Assembly: GCA_947561715.1 (NCBI GenBank)
Contig: OX387202.1
Span: forward strand, 8,755,001 to 8,819,000
Length of the DNA: 64,000 nt
Origin: Ascidia mentula
Taxonomy: Eukaryota; Chordata; Ascidiacea; Phlebobranchia; Ascidiidae
Reading direction: 5' to 3'
In this document: one piece after another, positions 1,225 to 63,558 of the stretch
Position numbering within the stretch: position 1 is the stretch's first letter
Layout: the number at the start of each line of letters is the position of its first letter
Made by a program: the position numbers and the translations under genes
Notes under the pieces: generated by a model
Told to the model about the DNA's origin: nothing
The model's database searches: none
What the model saw: the letters and a program-made list of their open reading frames with translations, nothing else

Positions 1225-2990
1225 TCAGGTGACTATTTGTTCATACAGTCATGCGTCCAATCTTTCCCGCCACTCTATTGAATGATCGCAGTTTGTTTGT
1301 CGAGGTGTAGAAGGTGTTGCATCACCGCGAACCCAACATTAAACCTGTCCAGAAAGTCCCAATGAGACAACATGCTGCCTGCAGGTCCTGTCAGAACAAA
1401 ATGAGACCAAAGGCCATGATCTGAGAGACCGAAAACTATGATCTAGGAGAGATCACATTATGATCTGTTGGACCGAAAACCAAGATCTGTTTATTTGTGG
1501 AAACAGTCGCAAATATATAGGGATACATCAAAGACGAGAGAGAAACAAAGAGATAATTGCTGCGATTACGCGACAAAGGGGACTTAGAAGAAGTAGCGCA
1601 AGTTGAAAGACGTAACGCAAGCGAGCTTTATTAGCTTTAACGAATTACTCCATAGTGAAGGTTCTGCTCTCACAGTCATTCTAACCACCGAAACTTCCTT
1701 CCACACGTATCAACAGAATTGGGCTAAACATATATAATAAAAACGCTTTTAAATGTGGAACAACATTCCTGAAAACATTAGAGTACAGTTTAGCTTCGTT
1801 ACAGCATTGCATTTGCAATTTTCTAATTCCTACGCCTTCAATGCAACTTAAAAAAATTTAAACAAAAGTTTACAAAAATCAGACGAAAGAATACTGTTCG
1901 GATCAGCAAAAAATTTTACTGGAAAACCCCATGAATGTCATTGTAGGCAGACTTAAGAAAATACGTTTCCACGAAATGAATTAAAATCGACCACAAAGGA
2001 CGAGGGACAAAGTGACACAACGGTACTGCTACATTTTTCCCAACGACTCGTGTTCCAACTTTAAAGATTACAACTCAGAAAGGATTATATGCAAGCAATC
2101 ACTTTCTTGTTACATAATAGAATAAAGAGCATATTGCTCGTTTATGAAATAAAGCTGTCAACATTGCACGATAAATGTTGTACACTTATATTATACCAGT
2201 ACATTCTCTCAATATGCGACATCAACTCAAAAATACTTCAGACTCTTCGCTGACAATAAAGGCAGCAGGGCTTCTTATAAACATGGGTGGCGACCCCGCC
2301 AAAATATCATTTTGGGGTCGTGAAACAAATTGGCTTTTGTGTGCTTATTACAATTCTCGCACTTATTGTTAGCTAAGCGTCGCGTTGTATTTTTTCTTGT
2401 AGATAGGGAGGCTTAGAAATTTATTCCTCAAATGGGGTTACGAAGCACAAGTCACCCTCTGTTTCCGAAAAAATCTTGTTTTTTTAACGAGATGCAAACT
2501 TTGCACCTCTCCATCTTAACGCAACGTTTTTATATTTTTTTGCAGAAAGTTGCACCGTTTGTTATTCAGAATACAAATTACTGCGAACTTAGTTCAGATT
2601 TAGAAAATATGTAACCCAGACTTTTAACTATCGAGCACACATTTAACACATAACGCAAATTATTAGTCAACATTGTTTGTAGATTACTGGCAATTATAAG
2701 ATAATATTTGATAGCCCTATCGGTTTCGTTATAAGCATGGGTTTGAAAAAATGCACGGACATACAAATTTGTCCAAGGATGCGTGCCTGGAGGAGTATTT
2801 TGTGAAGTGAAGTGCAAATATGTTGTGTTTTGTGTGACGTTGGTAAACTCTTTCAATCCATAAAATTCGTTCTGCGTCCCAACGCAGGATCGCGAGCTCA
2901 AGTTTGAGAGCCGCCATGTATGGTATAGAATGGATGGTTTATTTGTGTGATACAGCACGTTCATAGTATGAAGCGCTTTTATGACAAAAA
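1225..2990. other. Intergenic, no supported gene
   Basis: AT-rich DNA with only short chance frames. A local imperfect direct repeat sits at about 1419-1488, where two ~29-base units beginning ATGATCTG and ending GATCT flank a GACCGAAAAC core. Its meaning is unclear. Confidence 0.4.
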
Positions 2991-3000
2991 ATATTTGTGT

Positions 3001-3098
3001 GTATAAGCTGCAGACAGATGGCCACTGTTTCGACCTAAAAGGTCTCATCAGTGCAGCTGGTGTTACTATCAGACGACTTTGCTGACCAACGGCCAACA
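3001..3098 (-). ncRNA. Solo element with a complete type I hammerhead ribozyme
   Basis: Read on the minus strand, the element holds every conserved hammerhead part in order. Stem I 5' strand GCTGCA is at 3057-3052, core CTGATGA at 3051-3045, stem II GACC/GGTC with a TTTTA loop at 3044-3032, core GAAA at 3031-3028, and stem III CAG/CTG with a 7-nt loop at 3027-3015. The cleavage residues TC are at 3014-3013, and stem I 3' strand TGCAGC at 3012-3007 pairs perfectly with the 5' strand. Cleavage would fall between 3013 and 3012. Flanks 2991-3000 and 3099-3108 match at 8 of 10 positions, a likely target-site duplication. Related copies lie at 15.5, 36.3, 53.0, 54.3 and 63.2 kb. Hammerheads of this type are known from Penelope-like elements and retrozymes; activity here is predicted only. 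Confidence 0.85.
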
Positions 3099-3108
3099 AT
3101 ATTTTTAT

Positions 3109-12486: not shown

Positions 12487-17788
<5,302 letters not shown>

Positions 17789-34160: not shown

Positions 34161-36800
34161 ATGGGTTGCTCAGGTAGTATTCAAACCAAGAAATCTTTTG
34201 AAGTAAGTAAGTTGTTTTTATGTTATGTTTCCTATGTGTAACACAACGATCTACACCAAGCATGGGTTTTATTCATTTTACATTTATAGCAGGATTATTA
34301 CATTCTCAGAAAAAAATTGCGATGTTATACCTTCGCTTACCTGAACACAGCTACTGCTACAGTCTTCTTAAATATGAAACAGCTTACTGTGGCCGCAAGA
34401 TGTGTATTTATTGCGTTTTAGTAATGTTAATGAATGTAATGGGTGTGAGTTATGGCTTCATATTTTTAGGTGTTTCCGCCCGATTTAGATCAATCAAAGT
34501 CAAACTCACAAAATCCCAAATTGTCATTTGAAAATGCTCCAGATTTAAATCAGAAACCAACTCACCACTATAAACAAGGTATTTATTATAAGTGGAAAGT
34601 ATAAAATAAACTTGTGTGAGCATTTTTATGTGTACTCCCTAGACACAGAATTAGACACAGTAAACCATCCAGTTAAAATAAGACAAAATCATGATGAAGT
34701 TCTGGAAGCTTACCGAAAACAGCAAAAACTGTGAGCAAGCTAAATTTAATCTTTAACTACACTGAGTGGTATTATTTTCTAACTAAGAAAAACGTTACAG
34801 TAAAATATATTTGAACAGATGGAATTAATTTCTCGACATTTATGGAAAACTTTAGCCAAATGTAGTGATATTTTTTGAACTTAAAAACTTTGGAAAACAC
34901 AAATTAAAGTCTAAAATGTTTTTTGGAGTTGGTCCTGGGTCAAAAATGTTTAAGACCGATGTACTGTGCTGCTGTTTGGGGATTGTTGACCAAAATGAGC
35001 ATTGGGCAACTTTAAATTCCATTTTTTATTGTTTAAGGGAAACAGAAGCACTCTTTCAGCAACAATTACAAGGAAAACAAAAGTTACAAGAAAAACTCCA
35101 TAAAATATCGAGAAACAAGAAAATTTCTGTCGTTACCGGTCAATTGGTATCGTCAATTATTTTGAAAAGTGACTTTGCATTTTTTGTAATTATTCTCTAA
35201 CTTAGAAACCGGAGAAAGGGTTGGAATCATTTACACCAATCACAGGAGAAAGCAATGCGTTTTCCTTGATCAACACAGATTCCTCTTATTTGACCAGGTT
35301 TGTAGTATTTAAAAGAATATTCTTTTCCCTTACTTTACCACGTTTCAGAAATGCTGATATAACTTCTACAATTCCGACGAATGAAAGCTGGTTAGTCAAC
35401 GAAATATCGCAACAAAAGGTGGGATTAGCAAATCAGTAATCGATATCACGTGCTTGTCAACCTTGCGCCCTGATTTTCTTGCAGATGAACAGAGATTTGT
35501 TGTCCGAAATATCGGATGAGCGTGAACAAAAATCTTCGAACGAAATCAACACCATCGATTGGCAACAGTTGTCGGTGAAAGAAACACTTGCCAGGCGCAT
35601 TCCGACGCCTTTCCCAACTTGAATCTTGAAGTTGTATCATTTTCCAGTGGCCTTGATTCGTACTGTCTGGCACCTAACGACAAAGAAGAATTTCTACACG
35701 TTTAAACATGACAAACCTCTCACTTTTCTTGCTGACCTTGTCTTCGTATTTGGGAAACACGAAGATTTCGTGACAGTTTTCACAAATGCCGATGTATCGA
35801 CCAGACTTGACCGCAGTCCACCATCGTTACATGCAGGGGAGTTTCTTTTGCTTGAAGTTACGCTGGTCCTATATTGCAAACTGAGGACATTCCACTTGTG
35901 TTTTCCACTTTTATTTCTGTAAACGAAAATATCAAAAACGTCTTTCCTTTGCCTTCATCAACCAACAGGGGATGGGGCCCAACGGCATCTTTCTTCTCTT
36001 GTGATGTAAAAGCTGTGAAGTGTCGCAACTCTACATCTGCATTTAAACCAACTCCATCGGTAACTACAACATTCTACCAACGATATGACGGAGGTTCGGA
36101 CATGGAAATATTATTGGATCACTTCTCAAAACTCACTCTTCGGTGATGTTTATCCAAATGTATAATGATCCACACATGTAGAGGGCGAAACTTCTTCCTT
36201 CGTCACATTCAGCTCGACAACGAGTTTCACAATCTGTGAGAGATTTTGTGACACAGGTTCATATGACGTTTATGGTGAAAAATATTCAACTGAAAGTGGA
36301 GAAAGTCTTGTGGGCTTCTGTTCAATATTCTGATTCTTGTGTATAAGCTGCAAACAGAAGGCCACTGTTTCGACCTAAAAGGTCTCATTAGTGCAGCTGG
36401 AGTGACTATCAGACGACTTTGCTGACCAAACGGCCAAGCAATGACTTCCACTTTGTGGTGACTGATTTTTGTTCTAAACCTAGTAACTGTCGTCTTCCCT
36501 TTCCTGTTGCTTTCATTGTTTGGGAGAAAAACGAAGTACGATCGCCGGATCCTCTTCTATCAAAAATTGTCAGAAACCTTCCAGTTTCCTTTCAACTTTC
36601 GTTGGGAAGATGTGAGAACACATAGGATGAAGGAGAAGTTGTTCCTTTTCACAAAGTTTTGCTTCTCTCAGATGATGGATCAAGAAAATGGTTGTGAATA
36701 CGAATGGATGCATGAGCCTGGTCCAGACGAAAAAAATCTGTATGTTGCCGTGGAAAAAACTGCTCGAGTACTCAGTTCAATTGTGATAATTTATAATTAG
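34161..36800 (+). pseudogene. KY-C: decayed KY paralogue with open N-terminal exons
   Basis: The 5' part still looks like a gene. ATG at 34161 opens MGCSGSIQTKKSFE (acylation signal). Phase-compatible exons follow: 34161-34202, 34470-34578, 34643-34730, 35038-35146, 35206-35297, 35349-35418, then 35485 to a stop at 35620-35622, 215 codons in all. The exon at 35349 begins NADIT, like NVDIT of KY-B exon 7. All transglutaminase-core exons and the first third of the KY repeat exon are deleted. From ~35620 the sequence aligns with KY-B 47.5-48.5 kb but is broken by several frameshifts (about 35700, 35870) and stops (36143 and beyond), and by a 121-bp hammerhead insertion at 36341-36461. The repeat part is dead. 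Whether the short N-terminal frame is still expressed is open. Confidence 0.85.
36341..36461 (-). mobile_element. Hammerhead-ribozyme element inserted in KY-C
   Basis: A 121-bp insertion shares ~95 bp with the 3.0-kb element. It is flanked by CTGATTCTTGT (36330-36340) and CTGATTTTTGT (36462-36472), an 11-bp target duplication with one mismatch. The KY-B gene keeps the uninterrupted site. On the minus strand the core reads CTAATGA instead of CTGATGA (G5 to A) and the cleavage residues are TT, so the ribozyme is probably inactive, although all three stems persist. Confidence 0.82.
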
Positions 36801-49918: not shown

Positions 49919-54183
<4,265 letters not shown>

Positions 54184-54327
54184 ATTAACCAACTACACAA
54201 CATGGTGTTTCATTTGCTTTTTTTACAGTTTTGTTTTTATTTCTGTCTGTATCTCTGTAAAAATTGGTTTATAACGTAAGAATCGTTTCCCTTCAATTGC
54301 AACTATAGCTAAGTCATTATTTTGTAA

Positions 54328-54397
54328 GCTGCATGCAGACGCCCACTGTTTCGACCCATTAGGTCATTGGTCAAAACAGTCTTCATCTGCATGCAGC
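54328..54397. repeat. Foldback of two hammerhead half-motifs
   Basis: A 70-bp inverted repeat. Both strands begin GCTGCATGCAGA, then five divergent bases, then ACTGTTTCGACC or ACTGTTTTGACC, around a 12-bp centre. Read from either strand this is the GGTC-GAAA-CAG ... TGCAGC half of the hammerhead. It is likely a rearranged, inactive family member. It lies just past the ALKBH5 stop, probably in its 3' UTR (poly(A) signal at 54736). Confidence 0.65.
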
Positions 54398-54735
54398 GCA
54401 AAACATTCATATTATTAGCTCCATGCTTTTTTGTAAGTTATTATTGTTTAAATCAACATAACTTTTTGGTGAATATGTCACGTACGTTAAGTTATAATCA
54501 TCGAGCCGCTCCGGTAAAAAACGTGATTCTTTCAAATATAATGCAGACAAACTCTTTGGTGTTTTGTATTTGGCAGACTTCGGTCGCTCAGTAACTTCTT
54601 TGATAACTCACCACAATTATTACTGCTTATGAAAAACCTAAAATGTACGTTAGGTCAAATATGTGAACGTTTTAGTGCGATTCTCGGAGTAATAATTAGT
54701 TTTTTGCATCTAAATATTTGGTGGCTGTTGCTAGT

Positions 54736-62689: not shown

Positions 62690-63558
62690 CTTAAAGTGCA
62701 TATGACACGGTCAAACTTTGCGTAAAGCAACGACATTACTCAGTACTTCGAGAAGACGGGGATGGTACCTTTCTTTGCTCAGTGACATTACATGACGTCA
62801 TTTTGGGTGTGATGTCATAACTTTAACCTTACCTTTGTGTTGACTTTAATTTGATGATTCCAACATTTCCAGTTACAACTATATTGCGAAAAATACATTA
62901 GTGGTTGATTGTGGCGAATTACATAAATCATTTATGACGCGAATTCGTAGGCAACGCTCCTGTCGGACAAAAAGTGGTACTATGACAGAATAACAGTGTT
63001 GTGTTGCATAATCAGCAAATTTGGTCGTTTTTTCTCGGCGGTCTTTGCCGGCCTCAAAAATGAATTAACCTACTTCTGTGTTTACCGTGAGTGGACAAAA
63101 CGAAAATGCTAAATTTACGGTTTGTCTCTGTCGTGTTTTCAAAAGTTCATGTATCAAGTTAACGATCATAAATGCTGTAACAACAAAAACACCCTGTCCC
63201 AGTAACCGTTTTATTATTACACAACTAAATAAGACATAATAGGTCGAAACAGTGGCCATCTGTCTGCATCTCAAATTAACAAATCCGTTTGTTGCACTTG
63301 TTGACTTGTTGTCCCCTGTTTAATGCAATACTATACTAAACTAGTTTTACAATGTTTTTCATTTCTATGCGTAAGGCTTGTTGCCAGCACTCGCACGACC
63401 AAAGCGCCTTCTATGATGTCACGCAACAATAATATCTCGCTTTCGGATGATTTCGTTCGCAGCGGTAAAAATGCGATTTTGATCAGCTGTATCTCAGAAA
63501 CCAGTCGCCATATCAAGCTTCTTTTTTGCCAAAAATGTTTTAAATGACCATCTCTTAG
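62690..63558 (+). repeat. Dispersed repeat, copy 2, with a hammerhead fragment inside
   Basis: Begins CTTAAAGTGCATATGACACG and ends GACCATCTCTTAG, matching the ends of the 42.6-kb copy in opposite orientation. It is ~300 bp longer. The central region, including the hammerhead half at 63241, is absent from copy 1. Confidence 0.68.
63220..63270 (+). repeat. Decayed hammerhead element within the 62.7-kb repeat
   Basis: Plus strand reads GGTCGAAACAG, 7-nt loop, CTGTCTGCA, identical to the 3' half of the intact 3.0-kb ribozyme. Upstream, CTAAATAAGACATAATAGGTC replaces the CTGATGA core and left stem II. Inactive by inspection. Confidence 0.65.

What the first reader, a model, noticed from the sequence alone, without database searches (positions are those of the whole stretch)
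3001..3098. Complete type I hammerhead ribozyme on a ~98-bp solo element
Every invariant core base (CTGATGA, GAAA, UH before stem I) is present on the minus strand and all three stems pair without mismatch, including a 6-bp stem I formed by segments 40 bases apart. The flanks look like a ~10-bp target duplication (8/10). A tiny self-cleaving RNA unit that moves by itself would resemble retrozymes or solo pLTRs of Penelope-like elements. Seen: the motif and pairing. Known: hammerheads occur in Penelope-like elements of many animals. Inferred: activity and mobility here.
Basis: partly seen in the sequence, partly recalled or inferred. Interest (0 to 1): 0.85.

Follow-up and report, generated by a model that had tools for sequence, protein, structure and literature searches.

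The report
Truncated hammerhead retrozyme in sea squirt
The 98-bp hammerhead element is a truncated copy of a 284-bp jumping element (a retrozyme) in a genome that matches a sea squirt, and the insertion scars of its relatives look like those of Penelope retrotransposons, which points to what moves such elements.

Summary
The hammerhead is real: complete type I core and stems I-III on the minus strand, window 3006-3058. It is not a 98-bp unit that moves by itself. Window 2998-3099 is a truncated copy of a dispersed, non-coding 284-bp tandem repeat that fits the published metazoan retrozymes. The assembly matches Ascidia mentula.

The added result is how the family inserts. Of 40 places scored, 29 have two outward RNA-3' ends in opposite orientation; 28 of these have one end about 18 nt (S1) and the other about 45 nt (S2) past the ribozyme cut. 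None is S1/S1 or S2/S2. With eight more from a first set, 30 of 36 share at least 12 bp of flank. Penelope-like elements (PLEs) of the same genome, with RT and GIY-YIG domains and minimal hammerheads, show the same plan in 13 of 13 pairs read, 12 by script. A purified PLE is reported to cut and extend both strands from two internal sites. Most likely PLE protein moves these retrozymes by priming on both DNA strands, as was proposed in 2020 but not shown. Self-cleavage, circular RNA and the partner PLE remain untested.

The parts
2998..3099 (-). truncated retrozyme copy: unit positions about 200 to 15 of the 284-bp repeat; RNA 3' (reverse-transcription start) end at 2998-3001, truncated 5' end at 3096-3099
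   Evidence: 98% identity over 99 bp to the L009 unit; aligned
3006..3058 (-). type I hammerhead ribozyme (stem I 3006-3012 with 3052-3058; CTGATGA 3045-3051; stem II 3032-3044; GAAA 3028-3031; stem III with its loop 3015-3027)
   Evidence: energy of the hammerhead fold -15.1 to -16.0 against a minimum of -17.4 kcal/mol
3012..3013 (-). predicted self-cleavage site, C (3013) | U (3012)
   Evidence: position relative to the conserved core; not tested
2990..2996 (.). left half of a possible short target duplication, AATATTT
   Evidence: 7-bp match to 3098-3104; 7 bp or more is not rare among mismatched pairs
3098..3104 (.). right half of a possible short target duplication, AATATTT
36323..36463 (-). 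second, older truncated copy of the same family (93% over 141 bp; core reads CTAATGA)

Best explanation
The feature is a truncated copy of a metazoan-type retrozyme, a non-coding 284-nt RNA element with a type I hammerhead, in a genome that matches Ascidia mentula. Proposed cycle: tandem copies are transcribed; the hammerhead can cut the RNA into monomers (inferred), which may be closed into circles (inferred); the protein of a Penelope-like element cuts both strands of AT-rich DNA about 12 bp apart, leaving two 3' ends (inferred from the duplications); each 3' end primes reverse transcription on retrozyme RNA, one at site S1 and the other at site S2, downstream of the ribozyme cut (the fixed ends of the copies are shown; that they are priming sites is inferred); the cDNAs, often more than one unit long, are joined tail to tail, which gives inverted halves between 12-bp duplications (structure shown, joining inferred). 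The window copy is a one-sided product: a single cDNA started at S1 that stopped after about 99 nt.
For: Dispersed family: 70 matches (40 of 1283 candidates scored) and 160 matches at 40 scored places of 2169 candidates (150 of the 160 listed). The unit is 284 bp, 47.5% GC, longest ATG frame 46 aa, present as head-to-tail arrays. Ends: the listed rows gave 22 S1/S2 places of 40; reading the fetched flanks showed six more whose second half was short or unlisted. Together 28 S1/S2, 0 S1/S1, 0 S2/S2, 1 with an end elsewhere, 8 one-sided, 3 not classed. Independent choice of ends would give about 3e-9. Inner junctions differ between insertions. Flanks: of 36 S1/S2 insertions (28 plus 8 of the first set) 30 share at least 12 bp and 32 at least 10, against 0 and 2 of 1260 mismatched pairs; modal length 12. 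PLEs in the same genome (RT and GIY-YIG domains; 121 GIY-YIG matches, 150 of 382 candidates scored) carry minimal hammerheads (found in 18 of the 30 loci L029-L058) and show the same plan in 13 inverted pairs: 12 S1/S2 by script, the thirteenth by eye, 12-14 bp shared in 12 of 13. An anole PLE protein cuts and extends both strands and starts at two adjacent internal sites in vitro (PMC11167929, parts 1-2 of 4 read).
Against: The Rfam score of the window copy is below the gathering cut-off. Free-energy folding of the window motif prefers a competing ACUG/CAGU helix over the hammerhead by 1.4-2.3 kcal/mol, its structure z-score is only -0.69, and the minimum of the L058 relative is not a hammerhead either. 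No sequence similarity was noticed between the RT-start regions of retrozyme and PLEs, so no partner PLE is identified. Unit sequences within an array are not significantly more alike than between arrays (239 of 2000 permutations as low), and L010 holds unlike units, so a circular template is not shown. One insertion with a 16-bp shared flank (C2:16187859) has an end at unit 273 instead of S1. In a sister subfamily one place (C1:25505248) reads as S2/S2, without a duplication. Six of 36 S1/S2 insertions share fewer than 12 bp of flank. The window copy itself lacks a convincing duplication.
Confidence: 0.82

Rival explanations
1. A 98-bp autonomous ribozyme unit that moves by itself.
For: Sharp edges at 2998 and 3096-3099; complete ribozyme inside.
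Against: In the 20 loci read out (L009-L028) the same sequence is part of longer copies of the 284-bp unit, and one-sided truncations stop at different unit positions. No second copy with exactly these two ends was noticed; only the scored candidates were seen.
Confidence: 0.03
2. A solo pLTR fragment of an autonomous Penelope-like element.
For: PLEs with hammerheads and inverted copies are present, and the insertion ends look alike.
Against: The 284-bp unit has no long frame and closes on itself in tandem; the PLE hammerheads found are minimal (GAAA followed by 4 nt) and have unrelated flanks. Only part of the PLEs was read, so a PLE whose pLTR resembles the unit is not excluded.
Confidence: 0.06
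3. Retrozyme moved by a LINE through ordinary twin priming.
For: Inverted halves joined by a few bases of overlap and duplications of 12 bp or more also fit LINE twin priming (recalled).
Against: Both halves begin at two fixed sites, one at each, in 28 of 29 two-sided places. PLEs of the same genome share the plan. Homology to a LINE 3' end was not sought.
Confidence: 0.07
4. Satellite or fold-back DNA amplified by recombination or by a DNA transposase, ribozyme irrelevant.
For: Tandem arrays and inverted repeats; one copy (L015) sits in a near-perfect palindrome of about 2.5 kb that includes flanking DNA.
Against: S1/S2 insertions have their own duplication, inner junction and length; core and paired stretches are identical in the L020 sister copy while both loops differ.
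Confidence: 0.02

Closest known systems
Metazoan non-LTR retrozymes (Cervera and de la Pena 2020, PMC7229834; parts 1-2 of 6, the Discussion and passages read)
   Same: Type I hammerhead; unit of about 300 bp; tandem copies; below 50% GC; duplications longer than 4 bp; co-existence with PLEs
   Different: Here 28 of 40 scored places are inverted pairs with two fixed start sites; that main text describes tandem repeats and does not hold the word 'inverted'. Circular RNA was shown there, not here.
Penelope-like elements (PMC3846280, passages; PMC11167929, parts 1-2 of 4)
   Same: Inverted copies, an optional 30-40 bp 'tail' on one of the inverted ends, short duplications, start sites downstream of a hammerhead
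   Different: The retrozyme has no ORF, a full rather than minimal hammerhead, and S1-S2 spacing of about 27 nt
Plant LTR retrozymes (PMC4918200 seen in the search listing only; features from PMC7229834 and PMC7761336)
   Same: Non-autonomous hammerhead elements
   Different: Type III hammerhead, LTRs, 4-bp duplications, Gypsy machinery; not seen here
LINE twin priming (recalled)
   Same: Inverted halves from two primers on one target
   Different: In twin priming the second start varies from copy to copy (recalled); here both starts are fixed and unlike

Membership tests
metazoan retrozyme | canonical type I hammerhead core and three stems | tested here: met
   below Rfam cut-off; the sister copy in L020 folds into the hammerhead as its minimum, the window motif and L058 do not
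metazoan retrozyme | unit of 150-450 bp in tandem copies, GC below 50% | tested here: met
   284 bp, 47.5% GC; halves up to about six units
metazoan retrozyme | non-coding, non-autonomous | tested here: met
   longest ATG frame 46 aa in the tripled unit
metazoan retrozyme | loop 1-loop 2 tertiary contact in the hammerhead | tested here: inconclusive
   no clear internal loop in stem I from the folds
metazoan retrozyme | self-cleavage in vitro and circular RNA in tissue | not testable with these tools
   needs transcription, RT-PCR or reads
Penelope-like element | one ORF with RT and GIY-YIG endonuclease | tested here: not met
   the unit has no long frame; PLEs elsewhere in the genome do. So it inserts like a PLE but is not a PLE
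Penelope-like element | insertion plan: inverted ends, tail on one end, short duplication | tested here: met
   28 of 29 two-sided retrozyme places; 12 of 13 PLE pairs by script, 13 by eye
Penelope-like element | retrozyme RNA used as template by PLE protein | not testable with these tools
   biochemistry needed

The most novel reading that the evidence does not exclude
Paired-start rule: each two-sided insertion of a retrozyme or PLE is built by a two-subunit complex in which the two broken DNA strands must prime at two different sites of the RNA, one at S1 and one at S2, perhaps on one and the same RNA, so that the known PLE 'tail' is the trace of an obligatory second start site and retrozymes are parasites that keep both sites beside their ribozyme.
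Probability: 0.45. Interest if true: 0.72.

Novelty: new member of a known kind. Interest (0 to 1): 0.52.

Why it matters
Which enzyme moves animal retrozymes was left as a hypothesis by those who described them (PMC7229834, Discussion). Here insertion scars speak to it: retrozymes and PLEs of one genome share duplication length, inverted layout and the one-S1-one-S2 rule. That makes the question directly testable with an existing in vitro PLE assay and with other long-read animal genomes, and it offers a concrete role for the PLE 'tail'.

Tried and rejected
Conserved hairpin between S1 and S2, and a compensatory GUGG/CCAC to GUGC/GCAC helix: suggested by comparing subfamilies; the hairpin was dropped because its 3' strand in the L020 copy is shared with the left flank, so target and not element (my reading); the short helix rests on two subfamilies and is not claimed.

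Single-circle template from within-array identity: inconclusive. Length asymmetry between S1 and S2 halves: none in the 22 pairs (Wilcoxon p 0.50). Partner PLE through a shared motif: hits in L029, L040, L058, L061 and L062; only that of L058 lies beside a ribozyme, and L058's is a retrozyme relative. Pile-up of cDNA ends at the ribozyme cut, expected for linear cleaved templates: 1 of 15 ends within 5 nt (these are the ends that read as truncated, some since shown to be inner junctions, and those at 143-144 are edges of the query).

The flank count (35 of 56 pairs with at least 10 bp; one of them, C70:13397465, is element sequence) used the uncorrected edges and is replaced for S1/S2 insertions. 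A home-made extent function failed and was replaced; the S2 motif of L139 was misread. L015 was left out of the end counts (palindrome); L026 was not classed. L003, L004 and L008 (L003 is the same place as L014) look like duplicates of one insertion and were counted once.

Literature: no report of this end pairing in retrozymes showed up in the listings of searches and the passages read of the papers opened from them; subscription papers and supplements were not seen. [quoted passage not shown]

Full report
What is there. On the minus strand of window 3006-3058 lies a complete type I hammerhead: 7-bp stem I, CTGATGA, stem II, GAAA, a short stem III and the UC before the cut. A similar scan gives one hit in the window and none in 20 shuffles. 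Rfam models score it well below their cut-offs (20.8 and 20.0 bits), and the free-energy minimum of the isolated motif is a competing fold, 1.4-2.3 kcal/mol better than the hammerhead. The sister copy in L020 has the hammerhead as its minimum; the relative in L058 has not. Between the L009 unit and L020 the core and paired stretches are identical while both loops differ; L058 differs also in stem I.

Where it is. The genome held has 195,842,439 bases in 79 contigs. The printed totals differ slightly (196,975,169 bp, 95 scaffolds), so this may be another version. AGA/AGG codons of COX1 fall at positions that I recall as glycine, as in the ascidian code.

What it belongs to. A genome search gave 70 matches (40 of 1283 candidates scored). 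In the 20 loci read out, the sequence is part of a 284-bp repeat that occurs as head-to-tail arrays and inverted pairs. The unit is non-coding, 47.5% GC, and more structured than its shuffles (z -3.56). The window copy is 98% identical to unit positions 200 to 15 over 99 bp; its 5' side is missing. A second subfamily with copies spaced about 280-291 bp exists too. This fits metazoan retrozymes as published (PMC7229834).

How the family inserts. A query rotated so that the ribozyme lies inside gave 160 matches, 150 of them listed, in 40 scored places of 2169 candidates. Grouped by place, the listed rows gave 22 places with one end at S1 (unit 13-32) and one at S2 (unit 38-59), in inverted halves. 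Reading the fetched flanks added six whose second half was short or unlisted. Result for the 40 places: 28 S1/S2; none S1/S1 or S2/S2; 1 two-sided with an end at unit 273 (C2:16187859); 8 one-sided (7 with an S1 end, 1 with an S2 end); 3 not classed (C67:12524269, C70:13397465 and the complex C70:6587127). Eight further S1/S2 insertions are in the first set (L014, L017, L019, L020, L022-L025). Of these 36, 30 share at least 12 bp between their flanks and 32 at least 10, against 0 and 2 of 1260 mismatched pairs; the commonest length is 12 and the duplications of 12 bp or more are 78% AT against 63% in the window. Inner junctions and half lengths differ from case to case (22 cases), so these are separate events and not copies of one master. 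Independent choice of ends would give 28 unlike pairs of 28 with a probability of about 3e-9.

Exceptions. C2:16187859 has a 16-bp shared flank, of which 7 nt also match the element at its odd end. L015 is S1/S1 but is the centre of a palindrome that includes its flanks and was left out. In the second subfamily (40 of 1395 candidates scored) I read six S1/S2 places: C69:13006266, C2:5153318, C70:4487737, C70:4557331, C73:5531323, C2:15887322; the two on C70 have the same layout and may be one event. C1:25447461 reads as S1/S2, but C1:25505248, with the same inner layout, reads as S2/S2 without a duplication, so that event is unclear, as is C2:12419. The query used there cannot tell S2 from read-through.

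The same plan in Penelope-like elements. The genome holds PLEs with RVT_1 and GIY-YIG domains (three ORFs tested; in one RVT_1 is under the cut-off). Minimal hammerheads were found in 18 of the 30 GIY-YIG loci L029-L058 and in L059-L063. I read 13 inverted PLE pairs: eight from loci held, and five of ten pairs that I had first asked for. Twelve are S1/S2 by script; the thirteenth passes S1 and ends near S2. Twelve of 13 share 12-14 bp of flank. Retrozyme and PLE thus share duplication length, inverted layout and the unlike-end rule, but I noticed no common sequence at the start sites.

Reading. The anole PLE protein cuts and extends both strands in vitro and starts at two adjacent internal sites, the stretch between which is the PLE tail (PMC11167929). 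The authors saw no difference in start site between strands; that agrees with S1 and S2 occurring on either side here. Pairing of the two strands of one product was not reported in the parts read. For a bdelloid PLE the tail was noted on one of the inverted pLTRs (PMC3846280). I infer that retrozyme RNA is used by PLE protein, with one strand primed at S1 and the other at S2. S1 is only about 18 nt from the 5' end that the ribozyme would make, yet in the 22 pairs each S1 half is 61 bp or longer; so the template must have been uncut or circular at that point. Within-array identity did not decide between the two.

Judgement.

Noticed in passing
window 15482-15523, 52953-53018, 54317-54443, 63229-63288: Further decayed fragments of the same retrozyme family, one of them (54317-54443) an inverted pair; with the finding and 36323-36463 this makes six places in 64 kb, the one at 52953 weak.
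   Followed up: partly
L015:2269-4833: Near-perfect palindrome of about 2.5 kb with a retrozyme at its centre; real inverted duplication or assembly fold not decided.
   Followed up: partly
L059 (C67:6131000-6140900) and L043-L045: Tandem and inverted array of long-ORF PLEs with a 2870-bp period; two neighbouring units are 99.97% alike, which suggests recent activity.
   Followed up: partly
L058:2890-3060: Diverged retrozyme relative directly upstream of a decayed PLE, with the highest Rfam hammerhead score of the searches made (30.5 bits, below the cut-off of 48.5).
   Followed up: partly
L003, L004, L008 (C69:14.91-14.97 Mb): The same retrozyme layout at three places within 60 kb, apparently segmental duplications of one insertion.
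   Followed up: no
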